A stretch of DNA of 64,000 nucleotides from a virus, in IMG/VR virus record IMGVR_UViG_3300003323_000567, positions 1 to 64,000 of that record; one strand, given 5' to 3'. Positions within the stretch are counted from its first letter, which is position 1, and every line of letters begins with the position of its first letter. The notes below the pieces were generated by a model. The model was given only the letters and a program-made list of their open reading frames with translations, was not told the DNA's origin and made no database searches. This document shows, piece after piece, positions 40,666 to 55,636 of this stretch. A program made the translations under genes and the position numbers.

Positions 40666-40857
40666 TTACAATTTAACATCTTCAAGAGTATCCCATCTCC
40701 ACATCTGATTGACATTTTTTAGCTTGAAACCCAAGAAGAATTGATTAGAAATATCAGGTGAAAAAGGTATCAAATTTACTTCTTTTTCCTGAGATTTCCT
40801 AATCTTTTCAAGGATTTCAGCCTTCCTTTTGCGGATTTTCTCCAATGTTTCTGTCAT
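40666..40857 (-). CDS. Small charged protein
   Basis: This 63-residue protein starts MTETLEKIRKRKAEILEKIRK, a strongly helical, Lys/Glu-rich coiled coil, and ends with a Trp-rich tail. It lies between the ATPase and an 82-residue gene whose end it overlaps by about 40 nt. Function unknown. Confidence 0.45.
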   Translation of the reverse strand: MTETLEKIRKRKAEILEKIRKSQEKEVNLIPFSPDISNQFFLGFKLKNVNQMWRWDTLEDVKL

Positions 40858-41065
40858 CTTTTAAAAGCATTTCGTGTCTAGTAATTACCTTTCCATAAAG
40901 TATACTTATGCTCACAAGATCCCTAAGAGCCTTGTTGAGGAATGCAGTGTTATATTCAGTTGTACCATAGACGCAGCAGATGTCTTCGATTATCTTTTCT
41001 GTCTGTTCTTCTGTGAATTGAATGGCTTCTATTGCAGAAAGTTGGGTTTCAAGTAAGCTTCTCAT
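40817..41065 (-). CDS. Small protein of unknown function
   Basis: This 82-residue, mostly helical and acidic protein has EEQTEKIIEDICCVYG in its middle. Its ATG overlaps the stop of the NAMPT-like gene (4 nt), so it is translated with it. No family recognised. Confidence 0.45.
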   Translation of the reverse strand: MRSLLETQLSAIEAIQFTEEQTEKIIEDICCVYGTTEYNTAFLNKALRDLVSISILYGKVITRHEMLLKDDRNIGENPQKEG

Positions 41066-42594
41066 AAAGATTGCTTTATTCTTTTCCGAATGTTAGCAAG
41101 GTTGTCATTTACCAATAATTTTCCATCTCTGAAGACTGTCTCTAAATCACAATTCATGACATGCTGCCAATTGGTCTGATCATACATCACATAAGTCCCT
41201 TTCTCTGGATCATAATCAACTGCTATTAACCCTCTGGCTGATTTCTTTTCACCTGAATCAGTAATAGGATCCTTGAAGATCTCTCTACTTTCAATTTCTG
41301 TGGTCAAAAATCCAACAGAATCATCTTTATGTTCCACTTCTACTTCTCCATAGGTAGCTTTCATTGCCCAACCCTGAGTGTCTCGTGTATTGTACTGATA
41401 AGTAAAACTACCAATACCCAACACAATGTTAGTTGAAGCGAACCCTTTGGCTTCCAATCTTTTACAAATGGAATTGGCCCTATCCAGGTTAATGGAATCC
41501 CCATAGATAGCACCAATATGAGAATCAAGTTCTTTGTATCCATTTGCATTGATTTTACCTCCGAAAATGTCCCATAGAAGTTCTATTACTCCTTTTTTCT
41601 CAGCTTCAGTAGATTCTACCCATTGACCTTTCACTAACCTCCTTTCACAACCACAGATAATATCTACTGGATCTCCTGAGTCTGGTCTAATAACCAGCTT
41701 GCCATCTCTGGACATTATCTCCTCCCTGAGGGCAGGTAAGTACTCAAGAATCAGTTTCCAAAGATCCCATGTATCAGCTACTGCTGAAAAGGGGCCTGTA
41801 GGATAGAGTTTTAGAAGTCTCCTAAGAGTCTCTAATTCACCATTTTGCATCCCCATACACATTACAGAGTGTTCAGTAGCTGGTATAGAACCACCTATTA
41901 GCTCCTTCTCTGCATCTGCATTGTAGTACTCCTCAAGGAAGTCTATGGCTGGAACTGTATCTGTGCCTGTAAAGGATAATAAATGACCTGCACCAGACAT
42001 TGCTGCTGACTCAATGCTACTCATACCCCTAAAGGAGAAGTCATGTCCCTGCCATGGAACAAAATCCATTGGACCTCCTGTTTTCTCAGCCCAGCTATCC
42101 AGTAGCTTCCTGTACTCTGCAGCTATAGTAGCTGAGGTACACATCTGCCAGAGGGAAGCTGACATGCAGGTCTCCAGGTAGTTAACCAGCCAGAAGAAAT
42201 CTGGATCGGTATTCCACATTACGAGAGGAGGCACTTTAATTGGAACTCTCGATCCTTCAGGAAGAGCCATAATCTGTAAAGGAAGATAGCCCAGATCATG
42301 AAGATCAGAAATGTGTTTACTACCAATGGCATTGGGTCCAAGGGCAGTGTCTTTGCGGCGGTTGAAAGACTTAATAACATCATCTTTTGATTTGTCAAAG
42401 AAGTTCTCATTCCATTGTTTGATCAAGTATTCCTTTATAAAGTATTGAAGACCAAAGAATATTACATGATCAACGTTTGGAATTCTACTCTTCCTTGGAG
42501 TGAAGTTAGAAAATACCAGTTTAGTTCCTTCTGGATACTGCCTTCTATGGTCAGCTTTATACCAGTCTATTAGGTGAAGTGGATTAATATGCAT
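41062..42594 (-). CDS. Nicotinamide phosphoribosyltransferase-like enzyme (NAMPT or Namat)
   Basis: This 510-residue protein, the usual NAMPT length, starts with LHLIDWYKADHRRQYPEGT and FSNFTPRKSRIP as in NAMPT, and has KLVIRPDSGDPVDI with the catalytic-loop DSGDP near residue 310. It joins nicotinamide to an activated ribose: PRPP in NAMPT, or ADP-ribose-pyrophosphate in the Namat enzyme of the NARP1 phage pathway. The cluster includes a PRPP-synthetase-like gene (43767-44609), exactly the NARP1 pair, so it may rebuild NAD+ after host defence enzymes destroy it. Choosing between the two chemistries needs assay or tree. Confidence 0.82.
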   Translation of the reverse strand: MHINPLHLIDWYKADHRRQYPEGTKLVFSNFTPRKSRIPNVDHVIFFGLQYFIKEYLIKQWNENFFDKSKDDVIKSFNRRKDTALGPNAIGSKHISDLHDLGYLPLQIMALPEGSRVPIKVPPLVMWNTDPDFFWLVNYLETCMSASLWQMCTSATIAAEYRKLLDSWAEKTGGPMDFVPWQGHDFSFRGMSSIESAAMSGAGHLLSFTGTDTVPAIDFLEEYYNADAEKELIGGSIPATEHSVMCMGMQNGELETLRRLLKLYPTGPFSAVADTWDLWKLILEYLPALREEIMSRDGKLVIRPDSGDPVDIICGCERRLVKGQWVESTEAEKKGVIELLWDIFGGKINANGYKELDSHIGAIYGDSINLDRANSICKRLEAKGFASTNIVLGIGSFTYQYNTRDTQGWAMKATYGEVEVEHKDDSVGFLTTEIESREIFKDPITDSGEKKSARGLIAVDYDPEKGTYVMYDQTNWQHVMNCDLETVFRDGKLLVNDNLANIRKRIKQSL

Positions 42595-43084
42595 ATTTGC
42601 AACTTGCTCTGGTTTTAGTGCGTTTAATAATAAGTTTCACTGCCTCCCTGAGATCCCCCTTCTGGGCAATCCTGTTGGCATCACAGAATATATCCACATT
42701 GCCCTTCTTCTCATACCCCTCGGGACATACAACAACCATCTTGTGGGCAAAAGCTCCGAGTTCAAGAAGGGTAATGGGAGAAACTGTACCAGGATCAAAG
42801 TAGGTAAGAACCAAATCTGATTCTCTTAAACCTCTTAGTTCCCAGTTAACCTGCTGGCTGAACACTGGATCTTCAAAGTCATTGAGCACAGTGTTATCCC
42901 AGTCATCCCTACGAGGATTGAGAATCTGGTATTTACCATTGAGCCTTTTTGGAATAAGCTCTTCAAAGAGCTCAATGGCCTCTTGCTGCCATTCAGAAGC
43001 TGCTCCCATCTCAATTGAACCTGCCAAAAATATGGTAACTGGAGCTTTCCAGTCTACCCGGTGTGGTGCTTGTATTACTTTCAT
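42584..43084 (-). CDS. Nucleoside 2-deoxyribosyltransferase-like protein
   Basis: This 166-residue protein has ITIFLAGSIEMGAASEWQ at its start and SDLVLTYFDPGTVSPITLLELGAFA near residues 98-122. The order, FLAGSI...D...LE.G, is that of the nucleoside deoxyribosyltransferase / DUF4406 fold, in which the Glu of the LELG motif attacks the glycosidic bond. It overlaps the NAMPT gene by 11 nt. In this cluster it could act on nucleoside breakdown products or on NAD-related glycosidic bonds; the exact substrate is unknown. Confidence 0.65.
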   Translation of the reverse strand: MKVIQAPHRVDWKAPVTIFLAGSIEMGAASEWQQEAIELFEELIPKRLNGKYQILNPRRDDWDNTVLNDFEDPVFSQQVNWELRGLRESDLVLTYFDPGTVSPITLLELGAFAHKMVVVCPEGYEKKGNVDIFCDANRIAQKGDLREAVKLIIKRTKTRASCKYAY

Positions 43085-43086
43085 AA

Positions 43087-43377
43087 TTAAAATTTAGAAT
43101 ACTTTTTTGTTTCAATGTATGTTCGGAACTTGTCCATCTTGAACTTGATCCTTTTGTTTACCTTATCCTTCGGAAATAACTCCTTAAGAACTTCCATCCT
43201 GATTATCACATCGCCTATCTCATCAATAATCTCTTGCTCTTCTGGAGCTCCAGATATCGGTTTGTTGAGCTTTTGCATCAGAACAAGGGCCAATTCCATC
43301 AGTTCTTCTACTGTTTTCTTGAAATTGTGATCTCCATTATTCTTCACCATGTAATCAACCACATTCTGATCTATCAT
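43087..43377 (-). CDS. MazG-like nucleotide pyrophosphohydrolase
   Basis: From ATG 43377 the product is about 96 residues, all helical. KKTVEELMELALVLMQ followed by EEQEIIDEIGDVIIRMEVL gives the ExxE(n)ExxD metal site of MazG/all-alpha NTP pyrophosphatases. Small phage MazG-like proteins hydrolyse (d)NTPs or alarmone-type nucleotides. It overlaps the HAD gene end and is co-transcribed with the NAD cluster. Confidence 0.7.
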   Translation of the reverse strand: MIDQNVVDYMVKNNGDHNFKKTVEELMELALVLMQKLNKPISGAPEEQEIIDEIGDVIIRMEVLKELFPKDKVNKRIKFKMDKFRTYIETKKYSKF

Positions 43378-43798
43378 AATTACCAAGTTTTACTGTTCTG
43401 ACAAGCTCTGTGAGCTCATCATAGACTTGAATCAATCCTGCTCTATCATCTAAAAGAGCACTGAAAAATGGCTTCCTGGACTCCCAGGGGAGGCTGATAC
43501 CATCAGTATTCACACCATCAAAAGGTATTTTATTATCTTCCAGAAACTTAATGACATAAGAATGATCTTTGTAAGCAGTCCAGCATACAAGTTTACATCC
43601 TATCTCTTTAAGATCTCTTAATAGTTGAATAACCTGATGGTAGGTAGCTCCTTTAGCATGATAATCATGGACTGTACCATCAAAATCGAAGCCTATACAC
43701 AGGCTCTTATGCTTGTAATACTCTGCAAGGAGCCTATTGTAAGAGGCGTTCTTTGCAAGATACTCATCACAAAGAAATTCCGTATTTGTCTGGGTCAT
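43355..43798 (-). CDS. HAD-family phosphatase-like protein
   Basis: This 147-residue protein has the nucleophile motif CIGFDFDGTVHDYH near residues 32-45 (DxDGT) and LVCWTAYKD near 68, with FFSALLDDRAGLIQ as motif III/IV. The cap is small, as in phosphatases acting on large or protein-bound substrates or on nucleotides. It lies between the PRPP-synthetase-like and MazG-like genes, overlapping both, so a role in clearing nucleotide or sugar phosphates in the same pathway is likely. Confidence 0.7.
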   Translation of the reverse strand: MTQTNTEFLCDEYLAKNASYNRLLAEYYKHKSLCIGFDFDGTVHDYHAKGATYHQVIQLLRDLKEIGCKLVCWTAYKDHSYVIKFLEDNKIPFDGVNTDGISLPWESRKPFFSALLDDRAGLIQVYDELTELVRTVKLGNYDRSECG

Positions 43799-44609
43799 AA
43801 GCTATTTGTTTTATTGGAACATCGGGATTTACATACACCCCTAGGGAATCTGAGCAAATGACTTGATCAAAGTAGGGTGCCAGAACACCAGTTCCCTTTG
43901 AAAAGATTCCATGAGTGACTATGAGAGTCATGGATAGAGGATTCCACCCTTGATCTCTCAGTTGTTTAGCAATGGCAATAAAGGTTCCTCCTCCATCACA
44001 AATATCATCAATAATAACACAGTGTCTCCCAGCACAAGTGGCAGGATTCAGAACTCCCAGAGTTATCTTCCCTGTGGAAAGATCCCTGTGCTTAATGCAT
44101 TGAACAGTATCTGTGATATTGGAGTTCCATTCTGCATATTTGTATGCCTTTTTAGCAGCCCCAGCATCTGGTACAATTAGCACCGCATTTTCCTTATCAT
44201 AGATCTGTACCAGATCCTTATTATCCACTACTATTGAACCCTTTATCAAAGCAGGGGCTACATCTGAATGGGGGTCATAGAGATACACATCCAAGAACTC
44301 AAGTGAGTTGATAATATCTGCTACTACTTTAAGACCAAAGCTGCTCCCCAGGGGAAGATCATGATTCCTATCTGAGCGAGCGCCTAATAAATATGTAATG
44401 TGCAACTCACTTTTTGATATAGCTTTGTGATGATCCAGGGCACTTGAGACCATACAAAGGTCAAGGAGCTTAGCTGGGCTATCCAGAGATACTATCACTC
44501 TTGCCAGGTATTCTTCAAGTGCTACATCAACATGGATATGAGGCTGAGAATCTGGGAAGACTGTCTTTTTATAGCCTTCTCCTGTGTTCAAATTGATGGT
44601 TTTTATCAT
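43767..44609 (-). CDS. Ribose-phosphate pyrophosphokinase-like enzyme (PRPP or ADPR-PP synthetase)
   Basis: This 280-residue protein matches the PRPP synthetase fold: LGARSDRNHDLPLGSSFG near 90, VYLYDPHSDVAP near 115, and the PRPP loop HCVIIDDICDGGGTF near residues 203-217. In the NARP1 pathway the homologue Adps pyrophosphorylates ADP-ribose, giving the substrate for Namat. Here the two homologues share one operon with three small nucleotide enzymes. It is one base from the stop of the DnaB-like gene. Confidence 0.8.
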   Translation of the reverse strand: MIKTINLNTGEGYKKTVFPDSQPHIHVDVALEEYLARVIVSLDSPAKLLDLCMVSSALDHHKAISKSELHITYLLGARSDRNHDLPLGSSFGLKVVADIINSLEFLDVYLYDPHSDVAPALIKGSIVVDNKDLVQIYDKENAVLIVPDAGAAKKAYKYAEWNSNITDTVQCIKHRDLSTGKITLGVLNPATCAGRHCVIIDDICDGGGTFIAIAKQLRDQGWNPLSMTLIVTHGIFSKGTGVLAPYFDQVICSDSLGVYVNPDVPIKQIAYDPDKYGISL

Positions 44610-44610
44610 A

Positions 44611-45693
44611 CTATCTGTTTTCAGGTAAAAAGAATGTGTTGTTCAGAATTGATTCATAAACCTCAGGAGTCATGTCTGCTATCTTTGGCATCTCCTTGAA
44701 CATACCTATTACAGGCTGGAATGCCAGACCTATCCTAATGTCATCTGACCCATAGGAATTCTTAAGGATCTTCAGAGACCTATACATCTTCATACCCTCT
44801 CTGCTCCTCAGCATTGACAAATCATATCCAGAAGGGTCTGGAACTTTGTATCGCATAGGATCAAACAAGGATAGAACAATGTCAGCATCCTCCTGAGTTG
44901 CTCCAGTGTCTTTAAAATCCTCCAGCATAGGCTCTACATCCCCTGCCTTCAGTCTTATCGGACTAGAAATATCCCTATTGAACTGAGAGACCTCTACAAT
45001 AGACCCCCCATAATAATCCCTCTCCATTCGATCATCCTCAGAGGCCTTGTCTATTACATCCTTTTTGGTTGCCAGACCAGACTCCTTCTTTAGAAGACCG
45101 GAGTGATCCTTGATCTTCATAATGATCAGGTTAGGATCATTTGGAATATAAACCCTTTTGTGTTCAGTTACTTGTTCCTCTCTACCATGCCTTAAATATA
45201 ACTCCCTCATGTATTTTCTCATCCCTGTGGGGTTTTCTGGCCCATCCATAATGATTACCACATCCATAAGGGCTTCTATATAGTCCCTGTACATAAGAAA
45301 GAGATCATGTTCATCAGGAGTCAATCTTTGATCTCTCGGGCACCAACCCATTAGCCTTGTTACAGGTATAATTACACCATGATCCAGAAAGATTTTCCTC
45401 GAAATCCATTTAGCCAGTTTAAAGTTCTTCCTTCGCTCCATAGACCAATAAGGTATAAGGAGTCTTATTCTCGTAGTGCTGTAATTTTGAAGATACCAAT
45501 CAACAGGATTTAATACAAAGGCATCATCTAGTATAGCAGTCTTGCCACTACCAGTATACCCTCCTATTAGATACTTGGTTGATTTCCTGATACTTATGTG
45601 ATTGTTCAGTCTCTGAAAACCCATTGGTACTCCAGCATTATTGCCCTCTATACCTCCCTGAACTTCTCCTGCCAAATCATCGAATTCACTCAT
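44611..45693 (-). CDS. DnaB-like replicative helicase (SF4)
   Basis: ATG 45693 is preferred to an in-frame TTG five codons upstream. The 360-residue product has Walker A GGYTGSGKT at 44-52, a hydrophobic Walker B-type strand DVVIIMDGPEN near 150, and the C-terminal SSIVEVSQFNR region (GGSIVEVSQFNRD) matching the H3/Gln motif of DnaB. The N-terminal primase-binding domain is absent, as in many crAss-like helicases. It works with the primase (36615) and polymerase (49952). Its ATG overlaps the stop of the small upstream gene. Confidence 0.7.
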   Translation of the reverse strand: MSEFDDLAGEVQGGIEGNNAGVPMGFQRLNNHISIRKSTKYLIGGYTGSGKTAILDDAFVLNPVDWYLQNYSTTRIRLLIPYWSMERRKNFKLAKWISRKIFLDHGVIIPVTRLMGWCPRDQRLTPDEHDLFLMYRDYIEALMDVVIIMDGPENPTGMRKYMRELYLRHGREEQVTEHKRVYIPNDPNLIIMKIKDHSGLLKKESGLATKKDVIDKASEDDRMERDYYGGSIVEVSQFNRDISSPIRLKAGDVEPMLEDFKDTGATQEDADIVLSLFDPMRYKVPDPSGYDLSMLRSREGMKMYRSLKILKNSYGSDDIRIGLAFQPVIGMFKEMPKIADMTPEVYESILNNTFFLPENR

Positions 45694-45865
45694 CTGAATC
45701 TGTAACAATTATGGTAATTATTTTCTTCGAGCCATCTTCAAGTTCTACTTGAAAAGCATCGCTCAGATCTTTGACTGCTACTATACTATTTAGTTCAGTC
45801 ACTCCTATTTCTGACAACAGAAAGTCCATAAGAAACTTACGTGCCAGCTTCTCAGCATTTGTCAT
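45686..45865 (-). CDS. Small protein upstream of the helicase
   Basis: This 59-residue frame starts MTNAEKLARKFLMDFLL and is mixed helix/strand with an acidic end. Its TGA overlaps the helicase ATG (ATGAGTGA), so it is translationally coupled. It may be a helicase regulator or loader fragment; nothing in the sequence proves this. Confidence 0.5.
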   Translation of the reverse strand: MTNAEKLARKFLMDFLLSEIGVTELNSIVAVKDLSDAFQVELEDGSKKIITIIVTDSDE

Positions 45866-45868
45866 GTG

Positions 45869-46873
45869 TTAAATTTTCCAATGTTCGTACATTCCTTTTG
45901 TGATCTCATAAGTAGGGCCTTCTTGAGGTTGTCTTTTAGGCTGTTTCTGTACCCACTCCCACATTTTGCTCATGCCAGCCTGCAAGGTAGTCTGATCATA
46001 TTTGAAACTAGAATTGTACTTTTCCACACTACACACTGCTCTCTTGACCTCATGTCTGGCAGGAAGATACTGCACTTCACAGTCCCCTACTGTAGCTTTG
46101 AAGATAGTAGCCAGCTCATTCAGGGTATATGGAATACTGCTTCCAATATTAAAGGTTTCCCTTGAATAGAGAGTGCTTGTTCCAAGCTCCCGTAGGGGGT
46201 CCATGATATCCTGTACATAAGTAAAGCTTCTTTGCTGCTGTCCGTCCCCATAGATCTGTATAGGCTTGTCATTCAGATAGTTGTACATCCAGATACCCAG
46301 TACATTTCTGTATCTGTCCCAGATATTCTGTCTCTCGCCATACACATTAAAGGGTCTCACAATAACATAGTCCAGGTTATGCTGTACCCCTGCAACAAAC
46401 AAGTCTCTCTCACAGGCATACTTTGCTATCCCATAGGGGTCTGCTGGCCTTGGTATATAGAATTCCTTGAATGTGTCACCCCCTCCTCCATGTCCATAGA
46501 CTGCTATGGAAGAGAAGAAGACAAGTCTCTTTATATCCCAGTTGATACATTCATTAACAATGTTCATGGTACCAACCAGGTTATTTGTGTAATTGAACTT
46601 GCGAATAAATGGTGACAATCCTTCTGCTGCATAGGCTGCAGCGTGATAGACTATATCTGGATTCTTTGCTTTGAATATGATATTCATGAGTTGAGTATCT
46701 GTGACATCCCCAACAAGAAAATGCAACCTTTTATTGTCCAGAGGAAGATTTTCACTATATCCTCCACTCATGTCATCAAGTCCAACTATCTCATAATCAG
46801 TATTATCCAAGAGATAATGAACCAGGTTAGAACCTATCATGCCAGCAGCTCCTGTGATTAAAACAGTCTTCAT
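45869..46873 (-). CDS. NAD-dependent nucleotide-sugar epimerase/dehydratase (GalE-like)
   Basis: From ATG 46873 the product is 334 residues with the Rossmann loop TGAAGMIGSNLV at 7-18, VGLDDMSGG near 32, and the catalytic Ser and YxxxK: FFSSIAVYG near 120 and DPYGIAKYACE near 145. It converts NDP-sugars, for example UDP-Glc/UDP-Gal. With a glycosyltransferase just upstream (47083) and three more in the late region, it may supply sugar donors for modification of phage or host glycans. Confidence 0.8.
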   Translation of the reverse strand: MKTVLITGAAGMIGSNLVHYLLDNTDYEIVGLDDMSGGYSENLPLDNKRLHFLVGDVTDTQLMNIIFKAKNPDIVYHAAAYAAEGLSPFIRKFNYTNNLVGTMNIVNECINWDIKRLVFFSSIAVYGHGGGGDTFKEFYIPRPADPYGIAKYACERDLFVAGVQHNLDYVIVRPFNVYGERQNIWDRYRNVLGIWMYNYLNDKPIQIYGDGQQQRSFTYVQDIMDPLRELGTSTLYSRETFNIGSSIPYTLNELATIFKATVGDCEVQYLPARHEVKRAVCSVEKYNSSFKYDQTTLQAGMSKMWEWVQKQPKRQPQEGPTYEITKGMYEHWKI

Positions 46874-46874
46874 A

Positions 46875-47069
46875 TTAGTTTTTTGTAAGTAAATACCCAA
46901 TACCAACAACTATCAAAAGGATTATCAATATCCCTAAGGGGATCCAGATGGGTGAGGTAATCCACCACCAAGACCAATCTACTGTGTGGGTCAGTTTGAG
47001 GATCAGGAATACGATGAATACTAAAGTGCTTGTGCTATAGCCTGTTTTTACTACTTTCTCTTTTGCCAT
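46875..47069 (-). CDS. Small membrane protein
   Basis: This 64-residue protein has two hydrophobic helices (LVFIVFLILKLTH, then a long Ile/Leu run near the C-terminus) separated by a Trp cluster, and a Lys-rich N-terminus. It ends 2 nt before the epimerase start. Function unknown. Confidence 0.5.
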   Translation of the reverse strand: MAKEKVVKTGYSTSTLVFIVFLILKLTHTVDWSWWWITSPIWIPLGILIILLIVVGIGYLLTKN

Positions 47070-47082
47070 AATGAATTGATTT

Positions 47083-47769
47083 TTAAAGTGATATAATCTT
47101 GTTTACATCCTCAGACATTTTACCAGTGAGTCTATATTGGTCCCAGGCAGTTCTATCTTCCCCTATTAGCCTCTCAGCCTCTGTGTAAATAGTATCCTTT
47201 TCCTGCTTCTTGTTACTCCAGTGTCTGTGCTCTATTACCACTTCAGGGAAGTAGTGAATCTTGCCTATAGAGACACCAAGTTCTCTCCAGTAATTGTCTA
47301 TAAAGTAATGCTTTAGTTCAGGAGGAGCCATGAACCCAAGGGCAGCTATAATATCCACATGAATAAAGACATTGTTTGGTAGAGCTTCTCCCTGTAGGAG
47401 ATCATTCCCATAGCAAATTCCCTTATTCTCTTCCAGCCACTGGATAATAGGTGCCTCCCACCCAGGGGTCATAAAGACGCAATCATCTCCCATAAACCCT
47501 ACTCCAATGGATCCTTCTTTCTCCCAATCACTACAAAAAGCATTTAACTTGGAGGTAAGCATTTGCCTCTCTCCGAATAGAATTGCCAGCTCTACCCCAG
47601 ATTCCTTCATGTACTTGTCATGGACCTCATTGTAGTGATACTGATCATCTCCATCCAAGACCATGACAATTCTTGAATACCCTGAGGTAGTTCTTTTCCA
47701 GCTTTCCAATAACCTTTCCATAAGGTGAGGTCTTCCTCTGGAAGGCACAATAACGGTCAGTTTTTTCAT
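47083..47769 (-). CDS. Glycosyltransferase (family 2-like)
   Basis: This 228-residue protein begins KLTVIVPSRGRPHLMERLL, as in GT2 enzymes. MVLDGDDQYHY near residue 37 and VGFMGDDCVFMTPGW near 93-107 are the acidic donor/metal sites. It shares its start with the stop of a 44-residue membrane protein (ATGA) and is followed by the epimerase, so both probably act on one glycan. Confidence 0.75.
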   Translation of the reverse strand: MKKLTVIVPSRGRPHLMERLLESWKRTTSGYSRIVMVLDGDDQYHYNEVHDKYMKESGVELAILFGERQMLTSKLNAFCSDWEKEGSIGVGFMGDDCVFMTPGWEAPIIQWLEENKGICYGNDLLQGEALPNNVFIHVDIIAALGFMAPPELKHYFIDNYWRELGVSIGKIHYFPEVVIEHRHWSNKKQEKDTIYTEAERLIGEDRTAWDQYRLTGKMSEDVNKIISL

Positions 47770-47900
47770 TTTAATTCTTTGTACATTTTGTAAATGAGGC
47801 TCTCGTCTCCATAGCTCACTCCATCAATAACCAGGATTAAAAGAGGAATGAAGGTTATGGTAGCTGCCACTAGTAGTAATAGGAAAAGAATCAATTTCAT
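47766..47900 (-). CDS. Very small membrane protein
   Basis: This 44-residue frame begins MKLILFLLLLVAATITFIP, one long hydrophobic helix, with a polar tail. Its TGA overlaps the glycosyltransferase ATG. It lies just downstream of the long non-coding stretch, which could be its leader. Confidence 0.5.
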   Translation of the reverse strand: MKLILFLLLLVAATITFIPLLILVIDGVSYGDESLIYKMYKELK

Positions 47901-48265
47901 ACACATTACGATTTAAAATATCTGATGAAAGTACTCAGAATCTCACAGGAATGGCTTTTTATCACCGTGCCTCTAGTTAATAGTCTGAACGAAAGAGTCC
48001 GCTGGAGTCTTTACACTTCTATCTATCTAACCTTTGGAGCTTAGTTTAAAAAGGGTACCTTACCGAACTTTTCCCTCCATCAGATATAATTAGTTAAAAA
48101 TCAGCCTAACAGTAAGCAGAGCTATCCCCTTAGTAATATCCTTAAAAACCTAAGGAGATTATGTTAGAGCATAGTATAAATAGCTCTCTGGGTCTTGGGT
48201 ATATACTCCCGCAGGGTCTCTGGTTTGCTGATTGCTACTATAGCCCCTTTTTCGCTGGATAAGGT
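47901..48265 (-). other. Non-coding, probably structured region
   Basis: No credible gene is seen in these 365 nt. On the minus strand several hairpins can form, for example TCCTTA with TAAGGA and AGAGC with GCTCT, and there are unpaired GAGGGAAAAGTTCGG and GGCACGGTGAT segments that look like RNA cores. It lies between the replication gene and a small membrane gene. I cannot match it to a known RNA family; a long leader or an unrecognised ncRNA is most likely. Confidence 0.4.
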
Positions 48266-48940
48266 TTAGATGTCTACTGCCCCTGTCGAAGCAACATTAC
48301 TGGTAGAGCTCAGTTTTATATCTTCCTTAGGATAAATAAAGTTCTCATATGTCCTTTGGTTGAGATATGTTGCGGAGTTCTGCATATATTTCAATTTGTT
48401 CTCATTGTCCTTCAGAGATTGCTCCTTTTTTAGAGTTATTTCCCTATTCAAAGCTCTAATGAGATCCTCAGCACTGTGCTCCCCTTCAAGAAGTATATCA
48501 TTGAATTTCTTTCTACACTCCTCTTTTCTCAGCCTTAAACCTCTTGATCCACCATAAATTAAGCCTTTTATCACTATATAATCTGTGGAAGGATAGGTTT
48601 TCCACCACTTCTCAAATTGGTAATCTATCTCCTTCATGGTCTCTGCTATCACATCTCCCTTAGGGTCAAGGGGTGACCCGAGAGACTGAAGAAGGTTCTT
48701 TCCCAAAGTGGTAACCTCTCCTTTCTCTGTTATAAGACTCTTCCTATACAAATTTTGCTTCCATGCGGCAATCTTGGAAGAACTCATATGCTTTGCTACA
48801 TCAGTGCCCTCAAAAAGGCATTCCAGAATGAACAGGTGGTTCAAGTCTATTCCAAAAGTCTGTAGCTGTTTGAATCCTTCTATTGTTAGATTGAACACGG
48901 AGGAACCTTGGGCTCTTTGTTCTTGTTGTAACTGTTGCAT
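48266..48940 (-). CDS. Phage replication protein (DnaD/replisome organiser-like)
   Basis: This 224-residue protein has an N-terminal winged-helix-like half (LFILECLFEGTDVAKHMSS) and a C-terminal segment KWWKTYPSTDYIVIKGLIYGG followed by KEECRKKFNDILLEG. 'FEKWWKTYP' followed by a Lys-rich helix is typical of phage replication initiators and helicase loaders with a DnaD-like tail. The gene is near the helicase and polymerase genes. Its N-terminus overlaps the end of another frame by 131 nt. Confidence 0.6.
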   Translation of the reverse strand: MQQLQQEQRAQGSSVFNLTIEGFKQLQTFGIDLNHLFILECLFEGTDVAKHMSSSKIAAWKQNLYRKSLITEKGEVTTLGKNLLQSLGSPLDPKGDVIAETMKEIDYQFEKWWKTYPSTDYIVIKGLIYGGSRGLRLRKEECRKKFNDILLEGEHSAEDLIRALNREITLKKEQSLKDNENKLKYMQNSATYLNQRTYENFIYPKEDIKLSSTSNVASTGAVDI

Positions 48941-49115
48941 ATTGAAGCGATTTAGTGCGTTTTCTCACTTTACCAATCACTACTTTCACACGTCTATTCT
49001 TTTCGAAAAGCTCCCATATAAGCTCAGTTTCCCTTTCATATCTTTCAGTTTCAATAAGAGCCTTGTCCCTGAGGTATTCGAACTCCTCATCTGCTATTTG
49101 GGTAGTAGTCTTCAT
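48810..49115 (-). CDS. Small charged protein, long overlap with the replication gene
   Basis: This 101-residue frame starts MKTTTQIADEEFEYLRDKALIE and is coiled-coil-like for about 55 residues. The remainder (from KRTKSLQYATV) is the shifted reading of the replication gene's start and looks less protein-like. It may be a true overlapping gene or a shorter protein with a frameshift. It begins 3 nt after the previous stop. Confidence 0.4.
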   Translation of the reverse strand: MKTTTQIADEEFEYLRDKALIETERYERETELIWELFEKNRRVKVVIGKVRKRTKSLQYATVTTRTKSPRFLRVQSNNRRIQTATDFWNRLEPPVHSGMPF

Positions 49116-49239
49116 TACTAAAGATTTGATACAGGAGGGATTGTTTCCTGTATACTCTCCAATCCTCTAGGAGGATCAGTATTGGCACGATTAGCACCGT
49201 TGCCAGTAGGATAATTGTGAGGCCCTGAATCCATTTCAT
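49087..49239 (-). CDS. Small membrane protein overlapping two other frames
   Basis: From an internal ATG at 49239, a 50-residue frame reads MKWIQGLTIILLATVLIVPI then a polar tail. The hydrophobic helix is well formed, yet the frame overlaps the end of the 151-residue gene and the start of the 101-residue gene. Nested membrane genes of this kind occur in lysis loci, but both readings cannot be judged by eye. Confidence 0.3.
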   Translation of the reverse strand: MKWIQGLTIILLATVLIVPILILLEDWRVYRKQSLLYQIFSNEDYYPNSR

Positions 49240-49573
49240 ATTCTTGGTTTTGTTTTCTACGTTCTTCCCTTTCAAGTTGTTCCGCTTTTTCACGCTCATC
49301 ATGGATAGCTTTGGCCTGAACCATGGCTTCCCGGAACTTTGTTAACTCTCTGATAAGAGTGTCAACTTTGAAAAGGCTATTCTCATATGATCTATCACCA
49401 TCCTCGTTTAAACCAATAGCATAGTGAATAGAGTTCCCACAATCACGCATTTTCAGGGTAGCATCATGACTTGAGCTCTCCTCTGAATAGAACATGATTT
49501 GGGTAAAAATGGAGGCATCGGAATTATGCCCAGGCAAATTCACGAACTCCTTGGATGAATAAAATGGTTTCAT
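49118..49573 (-). CDS. Phage protein with coiled-coil C-terminal half
   Basis: From ATG 49573 the product is 151 residues. The first half, with FVNLPGHNSDASIFTQIMFY, is mixed; the second has KFREAMVQAKAIHDEREKAEQLEREERRK broken by no helix breakers, a clear charged coil, then a Pro/Asn-rich tail. It resembles recombination accessory proteins only in general shape. It starts 2 nt after the previous gene's stop. Confidence 0.5.
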   Translation of the reverse strand: MKPFYSSKEFVNLPGHNSDASIFTQIMFYSEESSSHDATLKMRDCGNSIHYAIGLNEDGDRSYENSLFKVDTLIRELTKFREAMVQAKAIHDEREKAEQLEREERRKQNQEYEMDSGPHNYPTGNGANRANTDPPRGLESIQETIPPVSNL

Positions 49574-49574
49574 A

Positions 49575-49925
49575 TCACACTGGTTTGTAATAGATAGTTT
49601 CTGGATACCTGCCTTCAAAAAGCCACAGAGTGACTGAACATAGCCACATAAGCGTCTCTGATTCAGTATCAAAATAATACCTACCAGAGATAGTAGGTAT
49701 TTCGTCCACTCGTTTAAGCTCATAAAATGGGTTTGGGTAAGTACTTATTTTTTGTTCAGAGATTTGAAGTTTCATCTCTTCTTTATCTTCTGATAGAAAA
49801 TCTAAGAAATCATCTGCCCCAGCTACCATCTGTAGATCTGCTGGATTACCTCCTTGAGCAACATAGCCATCCAAGTCTATCCACCATGTGCCATTCTTTT
49901 CTTTGTAAAACCTAAACTCTCTCAT
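49575..49925 (-). CDS. Small conserved protein (DUF6717-like, tentative)
   Basis: This 116-residue protein begins REFRFYKEKNGTWWIDLDGY and has ADLQMVAGADDFLDFLS near residue 30, a pattern I associate with a Bacteroidetes DUF family, unverified. It is followed by YYFDTESETLMWLC. Located between the DNA polymerase and accessory genes. Confidence 0.5.
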   Translation of the reverse strand: MREFRFYKEKNGTWWIDLDGYVAQGGNPADLQMVAGADDFLDFLSEDKEEMKLQISEQKISTYPNPFYELKRVDEIPTISGRYYFDTESETLMWLCSVTLWLFEGRYPETIYYKPV

Positions 49926-49951
49926 TTAACACCTCCACTTCTTTTCTAGCC

Positions 49952-51958
49952 TTAAAACAGGCTAATTTGGTTAGGATCTGGCTTTCCACCTTTTCTTTTC
50001 CTCCCTTTTTCGATTGCAAATATTCTTTCTTCTGCTTTGTCAATGTAATACTGATAGTTGATACCATAGTTCCCTATGGGAAGACCCTTGTTTACTTTGT
50101 TAATTACCATGCACTTCCATTCTCCCGCCTCACACTGGGTCACATCATTACCATCAGATTCAACATCGGGATTCTTGACCTTCAGGAGCTTTCTGCCTTC
50201 TTTAGAGACATAATAGCGTATCATTCGATCATAGATCTCCTTTCCTCCTTCCTTGTCAATACCTTCATAATGATATTCTCTGGAAGCCTTAACTCCAATG
50301 CAGAAATCAAAGATGTTATCATGGTTTCTGATAGTTTCTTCAACAGGCTTTCCTTCAACAAAGTACTTTTCCAGAGCCAGATTGATTATCCTTCTGCTCT
50401 TGTTCTTTTCCAATAAGAAGCTTGTCAGGAAGTCCCCTTTCTTCTTTATTTCCCCATCTGGCTTTATGGCCAGATAATCATTCACAGTAGCCTGGATAAG
50501 CTTTCTATACTCAGTATATTCCAGCTTCCCCTGCTCAGAATTACCCACCTTTTTCTCCCATGCGTAGCATGTATTATAGTACTTCTCCAGCATAGACTTG
50601 TCAAAGAGACATACTATACCATCAGTATTAGCACTTATGGTTTGTATCCCCTCGATCAGTAAATCCTCAATTAACATCAGGATCTCAAACTGGTTTCCTA
50701 TAGTACAGCTAAACTGTACAAAGGGATCATACTGCCAGGAGTTCTTCTCATTAGTCTTACCAAACCCCCCTCCATTCAGGGCTAATTTGTACATCTCAGA
50801 TAGACCTTTCATCTTCCTCTTCTCTTCTTCCCTTAGGGCCTTCTTGATCATCTGCTTGAAGGCTATTCTCTTCTCAAATCTGTCCTTGTATCCAATCAGC
50901 CATGCTTTGCTCAAATGGGATGGAAACAATCCTCTTTTGATAATAGACCATGGATACTGAGATCCAATGTCTGCATCCATAAGGACTTCATTCCATTTGG
51001 GCTCTACGATCCTGTTCTTTTCACTAGAATGAATGCCGCCCTTAGCAATCAATAGGTTTAACCCATTGATACTGAATGGATATTCTTCCTTTTTTGCTAA
51101 GTTTACCCTGACTTTCTTCATCCTTTCATGGAATTCCTGGAAGGGTTTTGTTCTGAACTTCACATAATCAGGGATACATTCTCCATAGGTAAACCTTTTG
51201 GTAGGCTTCCTATTTTTCTTCAGATCATATAACTGTCTGGTAGTTATACCCACGCTATCACAATATACCTTCTTGTTAATTTCATCCCCGATTTTCACAT
51301 CACTCCATGAGAGGGCTTTGGTAGGAAATTTCATCTCTTCAATTACATCCAGCCTGTCCTGTACCTTGTTTCTCCCCTTGTAATCTTCATGCTCAACTTC
51401 CCCTAGGGTGTATTTCCAGAACTCATAAGTAGCCTCCACATCATTTCTACAATAATCCTTGATCTCCTGGATCTCAGCCTCTGTAAATACCTCTTGAGTG
51501 TGTGCATAAGGCATTTCCTCTACATTGTAGAAATCCATAGAAAACTCCAGCCATTTCAAAGATGTCCTCTTATTCTCATTGTCATAATGATGTATCTTCA
51601 AAAGATCAATCTGTTGATTGTACAGATCCTCTTCCCTATAGGGAGGAAATAGATCATAGTTCTGATCATCAATGATCTTATTAGAGAACTTTTTAATAAT
51701 ATTCAGAATTCTCCTATTGTCATAATCAATCCATCTCTGATGGTTATCCAGAATAAATTGCAAAATTTGAGCATCATAACTTAACCCATTATAGGATATA
51801 GAATATCCCTTATGGGAGTACAGATGCTTAACCAAACCGTAAAGATCATTTCTATACTCAGAAATCTCGAATTCTACCCATTTATTAGTAGTAGGATTAA
51901 ACCCACAATAGAGGAACATTCCTCCAAGTACCTCTATATCATAGACTTCTACATTCAT
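49952..51958 (-). CDS. Family B DNA polymerase with 3'-5' exonuclease
   Basis: This 668-residue enzyme has Exo I VYDIEVLGG (Asp7, Glu9), Exo II SYNGLSYDAQ, and Exo III YCRNDVEATYEF near residue 165. Polymerase motif A is DADIGSQYPW at 328-337, motif B KLALNGGGFGKT near 395 and motif C SANTDGIV with Asp446. It replicates the phage genome with the primase and helicase encoded on the same strand. It ends in NQISLF, matching the QxxLF clamp-binding motif, so it may use the host beta clamp. No terminal-protein region is obvious. A tRNA-like element lies just upstream of its start. Confidence 0.9.
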   Translation of the reverse strand: MNVEVYDIEVLGGMFLYCGFNPTTNKWVEFEISEYRNDLYGLVKHLYSHKGYSISYNGLSYDAQILQFILDNHQRWIDYDNRRILNIIKKFSNKIIDDQNYDLFPPYREEDLYNQQIDLLKIHHYDNENKRTSLKWLEFSMDFYNVEEMPYAHTQEVFTEAEIQEIKDYCRNDVEATYEFWKYTLGEVEHEDYKGRNKVQDRLDVIEEMKFPTKALSWSDVKIGDEINKKVYCDSVGITTRQLYDLKKNRKPTKRFTYGECIPDYVKFRTKPFQEFHERMKKVRVNLAKKEEYPFSINGLNLLIAKGGIHSSEKNRIVEPKWNEVLMDADIGSQYPWSIIKRGLFPSHLSKAWLIGYKDRFEKRIAFKQMIKKALREEEKRKMKGLSEMYKLALNGGGFGKTNEKNSWQYDPFVQFSCTIGNQFEILMLIEDLLIEGIQTISANTDGIVCLFDKSMLEKYYNTCYAWEKKVGNSEQGKLEYTEYRKLIQATVNDYLAIKPDGEIKKKGDFLTSFLLEKNKSRRIINLALEKYFVEGKPVEETIRNHDNIFDFCIGVKASREYHYEGIDKEGGKEIYDRMIRYYVSKEGRKLLKVKNPDVESDGNDVTQCEAGEWKCMVINKVNKGLPIGNYGINYQYYIDKAEERIFAIEKGRKRKGGKPDPNQISLF

Positions 51959-51960
51959 TG

Positions 51961-52018
51961 TTGGGGGAGGAAGAATCGAACTTCCGACAAGAATACTCTA
52001 CCACTGAGCTATCCCCCA
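51961..52018 (-). tRNA. tRNA-like element lacking an anticodon arm
   Basis: It has a perfect 7-bp acceptor stem (TGGGGGA with TCCCCCA), a D-arm (GCTC, loop AGTGGTA, GAGT) and a normal T-arm (GGAAG, TTCGATT, CTTCC). Between the D- and T-arms there are only 9 nt instead of about 23, so no anticodon stem can form. Total length is 58 nt. It lies between the small basic gene and the polymerase. It could be a tRNA mimic that marks mRNA for RNase P/Z cleavage, or a body that receives its anticodon arm from elsewhere; a decayed gene is the plain alternative. Confidence 0.65.
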
Positions 52019-52030
52019 CAGGTTAAACTA

Positions 52031-52270
52031 TTAACAATCACCATTGCAAGGCCATTCACATGTGCCACCCATTTCACAATGATGAATCCATCTGCCATTC
52101 TCAAACCAAGGTTGATGTTTCCTATCTCTTTTTCTCTGTAGCCATTTCTCGAATCTTTTTCTCCTCCTTGCCCGCATTCTATCAATCCTTATTTGACCAT
52201 ACATACCTTGTTTGTTCCAGAAGGTAACATAGTCCAGTTTGTACCTTAGGTTTCTGCTTTTCTTTTTCAT
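52031..52270 (-). CDS. Small very basic protein with Cys-rich tail
   Basis: This 79-residue protein is rich in Arg/Lys (RMRARRRKRFEKWLQRKRDR) and ends HHCEMGGTCEWPCNGDC, a possible metal-binding knuckle. It is probably nucleic-acid binding. It lies between tRNA-like elements, so an RNA-related role is conceivable but unproven. Confidence 0.5.
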   Translation of the reverse strand: MKKKSRNLRYKLDYVTFWNKQGMYGQIRIDRMRARRRKRFEKWLQRKRDRKHQPWFENGRWIHHCEMGGTCEWPCNGDC

Positions 52271-52311
52271 GTTTGTAACTTTACAACATTAATTTACTAG
52301 TAGAGCTGCTA

Positions 52312-52412
52312 ACTATTTACTTACCTAATGCTTCTATTAAGCACCATACGGATTTGCACCGGGAAATATAAGGGTGTCACTAGCCCTTGAAGGTTTACCT
52401 ACCATAAATAGT
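52312..52412 (-). ncRNA. Stem-closed element resembling a decayed permuted tRNA
   Basis: An 8-bp stem (ACTATTTA with TAAATAGT) closes about 100 nt. Inside are a hairpin AAGGG/CCCTT like a long variable arm, a T-arm-like GGTGCAAATCC, and a 7-bp pairing GGTGCTT with AAGCATT across a 5-nt spacer, as if an acceptor stem had its 3' strand before its 5' strand. No convincing D-arm is present. Interpretation tentative. Confidence 0.35.
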
Positions 52413-52450
52413 ATATCGCACACAGAATATTGTCTCTGTGAAACATTTAG

Positions 52451-52521
52451 TGGAGCATAGGGGATTCGAACCCCTGATAACCATCTGAGGAGGGCCGGCA
52501 ACCAACTCCTACATATGCCCC
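52451..52521 (-). tRNA. tRNA, anticodon uncertain
   Basis: The 71-nt element has an acceptor stem GGGGCAT/ATGCTCC with discriminator A and a strong T-arm (AGGGG, TTCGAAT, CCCCT). The D-arm can be drawn as GTAG-GAGTTGG-TTGC. The anticodon arm folds poorly: the best stem, GGCC/GGTT, leaves an enlarged loop with several possible anticodons. A competing stem AGGAG/CTCCT would remove it. It lies between small genes in the tRNA-rich part of the window. Confidence 0.6.
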
Positions 52522-52528
52522 AACCAGT

Positions 52529-52840
52529 TTATCCATCATATCTCTTGGCAGCTTTTAGCATATCAATATGACATGCTACAGCTTCTAAGAGATCGCTCGA
52601 ATAAACTAAGTTATTAGTTTCTCTGTCCATTAGGACTCTTGTAAGTGATTTTTCATCCTTCCTGAGAATGAAACCAACTATGTTCTTAAGGGAAGTACCT
52701 TGCGAATCTTCCCTATGGGCCCACTCTGTAGTATCCTTGTCAACCCACCACTCAACACCTTCTTCATTTGTGAAAAAGGGTTTTGCATTTTCATCATTCC
52801 AGGGCCATAGTTTAAAGTTGAGTTCTTGTTTTTCTTCCAT
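52529..52840 (-). CDS. Small protein of unknown function
   Basis: This 103-residue acidic protein has an aromatic N-terminus (NFKLWPWNDENAKPFF) and a helical C-terminus. It ends one base before the NMNAT-like stop region and is co-transcribed. No motif recognised. Confidence 0.5.
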   Translation of the reverse strand: MEEKQELNFKLWPWNDENAKPFFTNEEGVEWWVDKDTTEWAHREDSQGTSLKNIVGFILRKDEKSLTRVLMDRETNNLVYSSDLLEAVACHIDMLKAAKRYDG

Positions 52841-52841
52841 A

Positions 52842-53234
52842 TTACTGTCTTAGTTTGGTACCCGAATACCCAGGCACCTCTTCTACTTCCTTTAGGGGAA
52901 GCCTCCCCACATAGTGCTCTTTGAAACTATCCCTGGAGTAATACAGGATTGGATTTACATAATTAGAAACCGAAATGAAGTTATCCACTTGCTCTGACCA
53001 CCCTTGATCATTTTCATCCATATCCCAGAGGGGATATATTTCAATGTGGGGAAAGATCTTGCGGATCATTTGAGCTCTGTAGTGTACTCCATAGGGATTT
53101 CTCTCATCAATATCATTTCTTGATCCAAGTAAGATAATAGTTTGATCACATTCCCTTAGGGATGTGGCAATTAGGTGTAGATGACCTGGATGAAGAAAGG
53201 GGACTTGAAATCTTCCGATTATAATTCCTGTCAT
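52842..53234 (-). CDS. Nicotinamide-nucleotide adenylyltransferase-like protein (NadM type)
   Basis: From ATG 53234 the product is 130 residues. IIIGRFQVPFLHPGHLHLI gives the GRFQ...HxGH nucleotidyltransferase motif, LLGSRNDIDERNPYG follows near residue 37, and YSGTKLR at the end corresponds to the SxTxxR motif. NadM-type enzymes join NMN and ATP to make NAD+. Together with the NAMPT-like gene 10 kb downstream it would complete an NMN-based salvage (NARP2-like) route, or act beside the NARP1-like pair. Confidence 0.75.
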   Translation of the reverse strand: MTGIIIGRFQVPFLHPGHLHLIATSLRECDQTIILLGSRNDIDERNPYGVHYRAQMIRKIFPHIEIYPLWDMDENDQGWSEQVDNFISVSNYVNPILYYSRDSFKEHYVGRLPLKEVEEVPGYSGTKLRQ

Positions 53235-53244
53235 GTTACGGATT

Positions 53245-53340
53245 TTAGTAAGGTGAAAAGTCATCACCATCATTGATATCCATTCCTAGTATGCAAACAA
53301 CTAGTAAAAGTACACCTATTACTATGATAAAATGTGCCAT
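53245..53340 (-). CDS. Very small membrane protein
   Basis: This 31-residue frame reads MAHFIIVIGVLLLVVCILGM with an acidic tail ending DDFSPY. It has a single helix. It fills the gap between two real genes without overlap; only topology and spacing support it. Confidence 0.4.
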   Translation of the reverse strand: MAHFIIVIGVLLLVVCILGMDINDGDDFSPY

Positions 53341-55525: not shown

Positions 55526-55541
55526 ATTAAATAAATTTATG

Positions 55542-55636
55542 TAGCGAGGGAAGGACTCGAACCTCCACGAGCTGTACCCAGAATTTAGCTCTCCACCGAG
55601 TTAGGATAGATGCTTTACCAATTTGCATACCTCGCT
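55542..55636 (-). tRNA. Long tRNA with an inserted hairpin, anticodon uncertain
   Basis: It has a 7-bp acceptor AGCGAGG/CCTCGCT, D-arm TGC/GCA with a GG-containing loop, and T-arm GGAGG-TTCGAGT-CCTTC. The anticodon stem may be CTATC/GGTGG. A 26-nt segment with hairpin GAGCT/AGCTC lies before the T-arm: either a class II variable arm or a small insertion. The predicted loop (CTAACTC) gives no standard class II anticodon, so the identity is unresolved. Confidence 0.6.

What the first reader, a model, noticed from the sequence alone, without database searches (positions are those of the whole stretch)
41062..53234. NAD+ rebuilding genes (NARP-like) with nucleotide clean-up enzymes
One operon holds PRPP-synthetase-like (43767), HAD (43355), MazG-like (43087), deoxyribosyltransferase-like (42584) and NAMPT-like (41062) genes; an NMNAT-like gene is at 52842. 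PRPP-synthetase-like plus NAMPT-like is the gene pair of NARP1 (Adps, Namat); NAMPT plus NMNAT is NARP2-like. Both answer defences that deplete NAD+. Having parts of both routes is notable.
Basis: partly seen in the sequence, partly recalled or inferred. Interest (0 to 1): 0.78.

Follow-up and report, generated by a model that had tools for sequence, protein, structure and literature searches.

The report
Phage NAD+ rebuilding operon with extras
A bacterial virus carries the known two-enzyme kit (NARP1) that turns the debris of destroyed NAD+ straight back into NAD+, plus two further enzymes, a phosphatase and a sugar-base-cleaving enzyme, that travel with this kit in many viruses and bacteria and probably feed it extra raw material.

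Summary
The 'NAMPT-like' gene is a Namat: it bears the published Namat clamp signature exactly (GSFTYQYNTRD, plus the stacking Arg) and falls in the Namat clade, away from NadV/Nampt. The 'PRPP-synthetase-like' gene beside it is an Adps. So this is a NARP1 locus, by sequence. The genome holds no separate NAMPT, so 'parts of both routes' is weak: an NMNAT-like gene exists 8 kb away, its substrate unknown.

The new part is the genes in between. The HAD phosphatase and the 'deoxyribosyltransferase-like' protein (PF15891) are not random nucleotide clean-up. Independent scans of viral contigs find the HAD beside Adps/Namat in 24 of 32 loci, and PF15891 within 8 kb of Adps/Namat/Nampt in 50 of 80 (control gene: 8 of 80). 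One phage fuses the two between Adps and Namat. In Bacteroidota, PF15891 sits beside Adps in operons with NrtR, NADAR, ADP-ribosylglycohydrolase, PARG, KptA, macro and Namat. I propose that both feed ADP-ribose into Adps-Namat, as RyDEP does in another phage. The link to this pathway is shown by context; the reactions are inferred and untested. The MazG-like gene is shared only with two close relatives.

The parts
43767..44609 (-). Adps-like: ADP-ribose pyrophosphate synthetase (annotated elsewhere as ribose-phosphate pyrophosphokinase)
   Evidence: phrog_619 E 3.2e-63; adjacent to Namat; ribose-5-phosphate loop reads DDICDGGGTF; no Adps among the 169 matched by the loop pattern has the PRPS-type Thr (DTGGT)
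43355..43798 (-). HAD-superfamily phosphatase, proposed NARP1 accessory
   Evidence: phrog_1238 E 3.1e-20; D38, D40, T42, K109, D118 invariant in 39 homologues, D117 in at least 90%; 24 of 32 independently found family loci adjoin Adps/Namat; model pLDDT 85, best fold match BT_0820 Z 9.8
43087..43386 (-). MazG-like small protein, role uncertain
   Evidence: weak: phrog_2245 E 4.3e-07, Pfam MazG below cut-off; found only in the window and two close relatives L011, L012
42584..43084 (-). PF15891 (Nuc_deoxyri_tr2) N-glycosidase-like protein ('DRT'), proposed NARP1 accessory
   Evidence: PF15891 E 4e-28; E108, the position of the family's catalytic Glu, invariant in 62; model pLDDT 91, 4mcj Z 17.2, DNPH1 Z 10; linked to Adps/Namat/Nampt in 50 of 80 independently found viral loci
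41062..42594 (-). Namat: nicotinamide ADP-ribose transferase (NARP1)
   Evidence: selectivity-clamp motif GSFTYQYNTRD at residues 395-405 and R37 of the clamp loop, matching SPbetaL1 Namat; in the Namat clade, support 100
52842..53273 (-). NMNAT/NadM-like nucleotidyltransferase without a Nudix domain, substrate unknown
   Evidence: PF01467 above cut-off, NadM models E 1e-12; LHPGH and SGTKxR motifs kept in two relatives
40817..41065 (-). small ORF overlapping the end of Namat, also found in L011 and L012; unknown
   Evidence: ORF; cluster 9; no family match
44611..45708 (-). DnaB-like protein directly upstream of Adps, probably same transcription unit
   Evidence: PF03796 E 7.6e-08; also next to the operon in L011 and L012 (cluster 8)

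Best explanation
The operon is a NARP1 locus with accessory enzymes. Adps (43767) uses ATP to turn ADP-ribose, left when TIR/SIR2/SEFIR-type defences cut NAD+, into ADP-ribose pyrophosphate. Namat (41062) joins that to nicotinamide and gives NAD+ in one step. The HAD phosphatase (43355) and the PF15891 N-glycosidase-like protein (42584) sit between them and widen what the pathway can use: I infer that the glycosidase releases ADP-ribose from an N-linked ADP-ribose derivative (for example a cyclic ADP-ribose isomer, His-ADPR or an ADP-ribosylated base), and that the phosphatase removes a phosphate from a phosphorylated ADP-ribose (for example ADPR-2'-phosphate from cut NADP+, or the 1''-phosphate formed when ADPR-PP decays). 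Shown here by sequence: the NARP1 core and the recurrent linkage of HAD and PF15891 to it. Inferred from families: both are active enzymes. Inferred only: their substrates and that they act as feeders. My confidence is about 0.93 for the core, 0.75 that HAD and PF15891 belong to ADP-ribose/NAD+ recycling, and 0.45-0.5 for the feeding mechanism.
For: Core: the window Namat has the published consensus GSX-Phi-X-Phi-X-Phi-TRD exactly (for the consensus; for the window), the clamp-loop Arg, and a place in the Namat clade (support 100) with SPbetaL1 and DyoEdafos, apart from NadV of KVP40-like ValKK3. Adps is adjacent and none of the 169 Adps matched by the pattern has the Thr of the PRPS ribose-5-phosphate loop. 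Accessories: HAD family scan, 24 of 32 loci adjoin Adps/Namat, including crAss-like phages cr111_1, cr126_1, DAC15. PF15891 scan: 50 of 80 viral loci have Adps/Namat/Nampt within 8 kb, 34 within 500 bases; control RNA-ligase scan 8 and 2 of 80. In all-vs-all clustering the commonest neighbours of PF15891 are Namat/Nampt, Adps, macro and HAD. HAD-PF15891 fusion between Adps and Namat in L017. PF15891 fused to an ADP-ribosyltransferase domain in phage Tunturi_5. Bacterial operons: Adps next to PF15891 with NrtR, NADAR, ADP-ribosylglycohydrolase, KptA, PARG, macro and Namat. At least 15 (HAD) and 16 (PF15891) gains or losses are forced on the Namat tree, so the pairing recurs. HAD and macro almost exclude each other in NARP1 loci, 1 of 126 with both against 6.8 expected, as if filling one slot. 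Precedent: RyDEP, inserted between Adps and Namat in DyoEdafos, turns cADPR isomers into ADPR that NARP1 then makes into NAD+ (PMC13232231).
Against: No enzyme here was assayed. PF15891's characterised structural relatives act on nucleosides or nucleoside monophosphates (DNPH1, MilB, NDT). It also sits with Nampt, which does not use ADPR, in about ten loci, so feeding Adps cannot be its only role. 30 of 80 viral and 40 of 80 bacterial PF15891 loci show no linkage within 8 kb. Nine of the 50 linked viral loci rest on weak, Adps-only matches; 41 have Namat/Nampt itself. Scan seeds came from NARP1 loci, and the loci are not independent (many Aquimarina among the bacteria). Most NARP1 loci have neither gene: of 71 NARP1 loci from the Namat scan, 11 have the HAD and 9 PF15891 within 3 kb. 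L011, a close relative, lacks PF15891 between Adps and Namat.
Confidence: 0.6

Rival explanations
1. Ordinary salvage: 43767 makes PRPP and 41062 makes NMN, with no use of ADP-ribose, as the refuting case of the finding states.
For: Both proteins are homologous to PRPS and NAMPT and are so annotated in databases. Namat is reported to keep about half of human NAMPT's PRPP activity in vitro (PMC12774641).
Against: Exact Namat clamp motif and loop Arg, Namat-clade placement, loss of the PRPS Thr in the ribose-5-phosphate loop, and a score far below the PRPS cut-off.
Confidence: 0.05
2. HAD, MazG-like and PF15891 form a separate nucleotide-degrading module that destroys deoxynucleotide signals, for example dAMP or dITP of the Kongming defence, whose effector depletes NAD+; NARP1 then repairs the damage. 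The two sets are neighbours because they answer the same defence.
For: PF15891's characterised fold relatives hydrolyse (d)NMPs; HAD and MazG-like families include nucleotidases and NTP pyrophosphatases; Kongming uses dITP made from dAMP and phages counter it by depleting dAMP (PMC12948488; PMC12774641).
Against: In bacteria and phages PF15891's company is ADP-ribose enzymes (NADAR, ARG, PARG, KptA, macro, ART fusion, NrtR), not deoxynucleotide enzymes. MazG-like is not conserved outside close relatives.
Confidence: 0.13
3. Metabolite repair: ADPR-PP is unstable like PRPP and decays to ADPR-1'',2''-cyclic phosphate and ADPR-1''-phosphate; the HAD (or in other phages a Poa1-like macro domain) recycles these to ADPR, so the phosphatase serves pathway yield, not defence signals.
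For: HAD and macro nearly exclude each other in NARP1 loci; in Vibrio phage JSF10 a macro protein annotated 'phosphatase' holds the place between Adps and Namat; macro proteins of the Poa1 type are ADPR-1''-phosphatases (general knowledge); KptA, which makes ADPR cyclic phosphate, is in the bacterial operons.
Against: Decay of ADPR-PP is argued by analogy with PRPP only. The exclusion test is not corrected for relatedness. It does not explain PF15891.
Confidence: 0.2
4. Both routes run: Namat also makes NMN from host PRPP and the NMNAT-like protein (52842) turns it into NAD+, giving a NARP1 plus NARP2-like phage.
For: Residual PRPP activity of Namat (PMC12774641); the NMNAT-like protein keeps the HxGH and SxTxxR motifs in three phages; NadM-like genes lie in 10 PF15891 loci.
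Against: No second NAMPT-family gene in the record; the NMNAT-like protein is short (143 aa), 8 kb away, scores far below NMNAT cut-offs, and could use another nucleotide.
Confidence: 0.2

Closest known systems
NARP1 (Adps + Namat), as in Bacillus phage SPbetaL1, Mycobacterium phage DyoEdafos and ICP1 NrsAB
   Same: Adjacent Adps and Namat; Namat clamp motif identical to SPbetaL1 (GSFTYQYNTRD) and about 52-55% identical overall
   Different: HAD, MazG-like and PF15891 genes lie between Adps and Namat; SPbetaL1 has none
RyDEP-NARP1 operon of phage DyoEdafos (PMC13232231)
   Same: An accessory enzyme gene sits between Adps and Namat; precedent for feeding ADPR into NARP1
   Different: RyDEP is an RyR-domain glycosidase; here the inserted genes are a HAD and PF15891. 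No RyR match in this record, but that search had no positive control
crAss-like phages cr111_1, cr126_1, DAC15
   Same: HAD of the same family next to Namat and Adps
   Different: Order Namat-HAD-Adps in transcription; no PF15891 between; HAD annotated 'phosphoheptose isomerase', with no support for that name here
Bacterial ARG-centred ADP-ribose operons with NrtR-type regulators (PMC9503650)
   Same: NUDIX-winged-helix regulator, ADP-ribosylglycohydrolase, macro, NADAR
   Different: The passages I read do not describe Adps, Namat or PF15891 in such operons; the phage locus has neither regulator nor ARG
PF15891 / BDI_0649 (PDB 4mcj), DNPH1, nucleoside 2-deoxyribosyltransferases
   Same: Fold and catalytic Glu position
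   Different: Substrate unknown; only 11-16% identity to DNPH1 and NDT; context points to ADP-ribose, not deoxynucleosides

Membership tests
NARP1 | Namat selectivity-clamp helix motif GSX-Phi-X-Phi-X-Phi-TRD | tested here: met
   GSFTYQYNTRD at residues 395-405
NARP1 | adenine-stacking residue in the clamp loop | tested here: met
   R37, aligned without gaps to SPbetaL1 R40
NARP1 | Namat phylogenetic placement, apart from Nampt/NadV | tested here: met
   clade of 137, support 100; Nampt-type rows outside (FastTree)
NARP1 | an Adps gene next to Namat | tested here: met
   43767-44609, same operon; Adps-type loop DDICDGGGTF
NARP1 | enzymes make NAD+ from ADPR, ATP and nicotinamide and counter NAD+-depleting defence | not testable with these tools
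   needs assay and infection
NARP2 (Nampt + NMNAT) | PRPP-type Nampt gene | tested here: not met
   only NAMPT-family gene in the record is the Namat
NARP2 (Nampt + NMNAT) | NMN adenylyltransferase | tested here: inconclusive
   52842-53273 has HIGH-type motifs but scores below all NMNAT cut-offs
PF15891 (Nuc_deoxyri_tr2) | score above the curated cut-off; catalytic Glu | tested here: met
   98 against 30 bits; E108 invariant in 62
nucleoside 2-deoxyribosyltransferase / dNMP hydrolase | activity on deoxynucleosides or dNMPs | not testable with these tools
   fold similar (Z 9-10 to DNPH1 and NDT); substrate unknown
HAD-superfamily phosphatase | DxD-T, K and DD catalytic set | tested here: met
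   D38, D40, T42, K109, D118 invariant in 39; D117 in at least 90%
MazG pyrophosphohydrolase | score above the curated cut-off | tested here: not met
   13.8 against 22 bits; only PHROG matches are significant
RyDEP (PF02026) | RyR domain | tested here: inconclusive
   no match in the record, but nothing rang in the controls either

The most novel reading that the evidence does not exclude
PF15891 proteins in NARP1 loci are a new class of anti-defence enzyme: N-glycosidases that break an N-linked ADP-ribose immune signal or adduct (cADPR, N7-cADPR, His-ADPR or ADP-ribosylated base), cancelling the signal and handing the ADP-ribose to Adps-Namat; the HAD does the same for phosphorylated forms. 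The bacterial operons would be a general ADP-ribose-to-NAD+ recycling system from which phages took modules.
Probability: 0.3. Interest if true: 0.85.

Novelty: new variant of a known kind. Interest (0 to 1): 0.62.

Why it matters
If right, two widespread and unexplained protein families get a pathway: recycling of ADP-ribose into NAD+. It would show that NARP1 is often a core with exchangeable feeders (RyR, macro, NADAR, HAD, PF15891), suggest new enzymes that disarm NAD+-derived immune signals, and explain bacterial NARP1 homologues, whose role is said to be open (PMC12774641), as part of an ADP-ribose salvage operon. It is directly testable with purified proteins and, in part, with a cultured phage (DAC15).

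Tried and rejected
PF15891 scan with the single window sequence found no relatives in viral contigs; an alignment query did. Reading JSF10's 'phosphatase' as a HAD was wrong: it is a macro domain. The A1S_2505-family protein at 54865 was considered as a macro domain by eye; profile comparison gave no support. Macro and Nudix families were searched for in the record and not found. HAD fold search gave only generic HADs beyond BT_0820, so no substrate could be read from it. Fold search for PF15891 likewise gives the N-glycosidase fold but no substrate. The Nature 2024 NARP paper and other subscription papers are not held, so prior notice there of HAD or PF15891 cannot be excluded; searches of held papers found none. 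Promoter/terminator scans were uninformative.
Full report
WHAT IS THERE. The window is bases 1-64000 of a 126,034-base virus record from IMG/VR. On the minus strand, in transcription order, lie a DnaB-like gene (44611-45708), an Adps-like gene (43767-44609), a HAD phosphatase (43355-43798), a MazG-like gene (43087-43386), a PF15891 protein (42584-43084), a NAMPT-family gene (41062-42594) and a small unknown ORF (40817-41065). The genes abut or overlap, so they are one unit. An NMNAT-like gene lies 8 kb away at 52842-53273.

NARP1 OR ORDINARY SALVAGE. A 2026 structural paper (PMC12774641) defines what separates Namat, which uses ADP-ribose pyrophosphate, from Nampt, which uses PRPP: a clamp helix with the motif GSX-Phi-X-Phi-X-Phi-TRD and a stacking residue in a clamp loop. 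The window protein has GSFTYQYNTRD at residues 395-405 and R37 in the loop, aligned without gaps to SPbetaL1 R40. Its best PDB matches are chains 9w5w and 9w5x (6.6e-162), which I take from their residue numbering to be SPbetaL1 Namat. ValKK3 NadV, a KVP40-type Nampt, has GMGGGLLQQLDRD instead. In a tree of 148 sequences the window lies in a clade of 137 with support 100 that holds SPbetaL1 and DyoEdafos, both experimentally NARP1; ValKK3 NadV and ten contig sequences without the motif lie outside (FastTree, long branches noted). The neighbour is Adps-like: 61 bits against a cut-off of 113 for true PRPP synthetases. Of 181 Adps proteins examined, 169 fit the pattern for the ribose-5-phosphate loop, and none has the Thr of the PRPS motif DTGGT; the window has DGGGT. 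That loop test is my own and is not a published criterion. I conclude NARP1 by sequence.

BOTH ROUTES? The record holds one NAMPT-family gene, so a NARP2 route as such is absent. The NMNAT-like protein keeps LHPGH and SGTKxR and is 67-70% identical in two relatives, so it is a real gene of the HIGH superfamily. It could pair with Namat's residual PRPP activity, but its substrate is unknown.

THE GENES IN BETWEEN. HAD: the same family (phrog_1238, called 'phosphoheptose isomerase' in the annotation) stands next to Namat and Adps in crAss-like phages cr111_1, cr126_1 and DAC15. A scan of viral contigs for the HAD alone gave 32 loci; 24 adjoin Adps and/or Namat. PF15891: a scan for this family alone gave 80 best loci; 50 have Adps, Namat or Nampt within 8 kb and 34 within 500 bases. 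Nine of the 50 are Adps-only with low scores; 41 have Namat or Nampt itself. A control scan for an RNA ligase, with seeds taken mostly from PF15891 loci and so biased towards NARP1, gave 8 and 2 of 80 (Fisher p 2.6e-12 and 3.4e-10, not corrected for relatedness). When all neighbours of PF15891 are clustered, the commonest families are Namat/Nampt (46 loci), Adps (40), macro (23) and HAD (18), then homing endonucleases (17).

FUSIONS. In L017 one 300-residue ORF between Adps and Namat is a HAD fused to PF15891. In Tunturiibacter phage Tunturi_5 a 1262-residue protein fuses PF15891 to an ADP-ribosyltransferase domain.

BACTERIA. In GTDB genomes, 39 of 80 PF15891 loci, mostly Bacteroidota and many of them Aquimarina, carry an Adps match, usually the gene directly upstream (one match, on the opposite strand, is doubtful); 32 carry Namat. 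The same operons hold an NrtR-type regulator, NADAR, ADP-ribosylglycohydrolase, DUF4291, KptA, microbial PARG, macro and SLOG genes. Two Bacteroidetes MAGs have Adps-HAD-PF15891-Namat (L251, L279). PMC9503650 describes ARG-centred operons with NUDIX/WYL regulators, macro and NADAR; the passages I read do not mention Adps, Namat or PF15891 there.

HOW OFTEN, AND IN WHAT PATTERN. On the Namat tree the HAD label needs at least 15 and PF15891 at least 16 gains or losses, so the pairing recurs and is not one inherited block. In 126 NARP1 loci the HAD and macro genes occur together once against 6.8 expected, while macro and PF15891 go together (not corrected for relatedness). HAD and macro may therefore fill one phosphatase-like slot. 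Most NARP1 loci have no accessory: of 71 from the Namat scan, 11 have the HAD, 9 PF15891, 7 macro and 2 NADAR within 3 kb.

ENZYME STATE AND FOLD. The HAD catalytic set D38, D40, T42, K109, D118 is invariant in 39 homologues, with D117 in at least 90%; the best fold match is BT_0820, Z 9.8 over 105 residues at 4.0 A. The PF15891 model (pLDDT 91) matches 4mcj, Z 17.2 over 144 residues at 2.3 A, then YtoQ, DNPH1 and nucleoside deoxyribosyltransferases at Z 9-11. E108, at the position of the family's catalytic Glu, is invariant in 62 sequences. These families act at N-glycosidic bonds, but a fold does not give the substrate.

HOW IT PROBABLY WORKS. The precedent is RyDEP: its gene is inserted between Adps and Namat in DyoEdafos; it cuts 2'cADPR and 3'cADPR to ADPR, which Adps and Namat then turn into NAD+ (PMC13232231). 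By analogy, PF15891 would free ADPR from an N-linked derivative and the HAD from a phosphorylated one. That PF15891 also sits with PRPP-type Nampt in about ten loci shows that feeding Adps is not its only use; removing an ADPR-based signal would help any phage that fights NAD+ loss. The same phage also has a NADAR gene 500 bases beyond the window.

LIMITS. The links are statistical and contextual. Seeds for the scans came from NARP1 loci, only the best 80 of more than 500 PF15891 matches were examined, and loci are related to each other. No activity or protection was tested. The Nature 2024 paper that defined NARP1 is not in the held library, so I cannot say whether its supplements list these neighbours.

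Noticed in passing
G000:C1:64499-64939 (500 bases beyond the window end): NADAR-domain gene (PF08719, E 6.6e-19) in the same phage, another ADP-ribose-processing enzyme.
   Followed up: partly
L210:4989-8777 (phage Tunturi_5): 1262-aa protein next to the portal gene fusing PF15891 with an ADP-ribosyltransferase of polyvalent proteins; annotated as a NUDIX hydrolase.
   Followed up: partly
L217-L289, mostly Aquimarina and other Bacteroidota: Large bacterial operons: NrtR-type regulator, Adps, PF15891, NADAR, ARG, DUF4291, KptA, PARG, macro, Namat; look like ADP-ribose-to-NAD+ recycling.
   Followed up: partly
L136, L147, L156, L160, L166, L178, L200 and L179/L181/L184: PF15891 next to a PRPP-type Nampt without Adps; seven of the loci also carry macro.
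   Followed up: partly
L028, L033, L039, L165 (also L052, L144): Namat relatives with an insert inside the clamp motif (for example GSFTYQGAVTPDAIITRD); substrate preference may differ.
   Followed up: no
L003, L014, L067, L082, L097, L179: SPFH/band-7-like genes recur near NARP1 loci.
   Followed up: no
window 54865-55296: A1S_2505-family phage protein (98.8 bits against 45) of unknown function; resembles a macro loop by eye, but profile comparison gives no support.
   Followed up: partly
window 4-15152: Two very long consecutive ORFs of 2801 and 2247 aa on the plus strand, not examined.
   Followed up: no
window 55541-55636: tRNA-Val (anticodon aac) gene.
   Followed up: no
window 45869-46909: Nucleotide-sugar epimerase gene upstream of the operon (PF01370 E 3.9e-47).
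   Followed up: no
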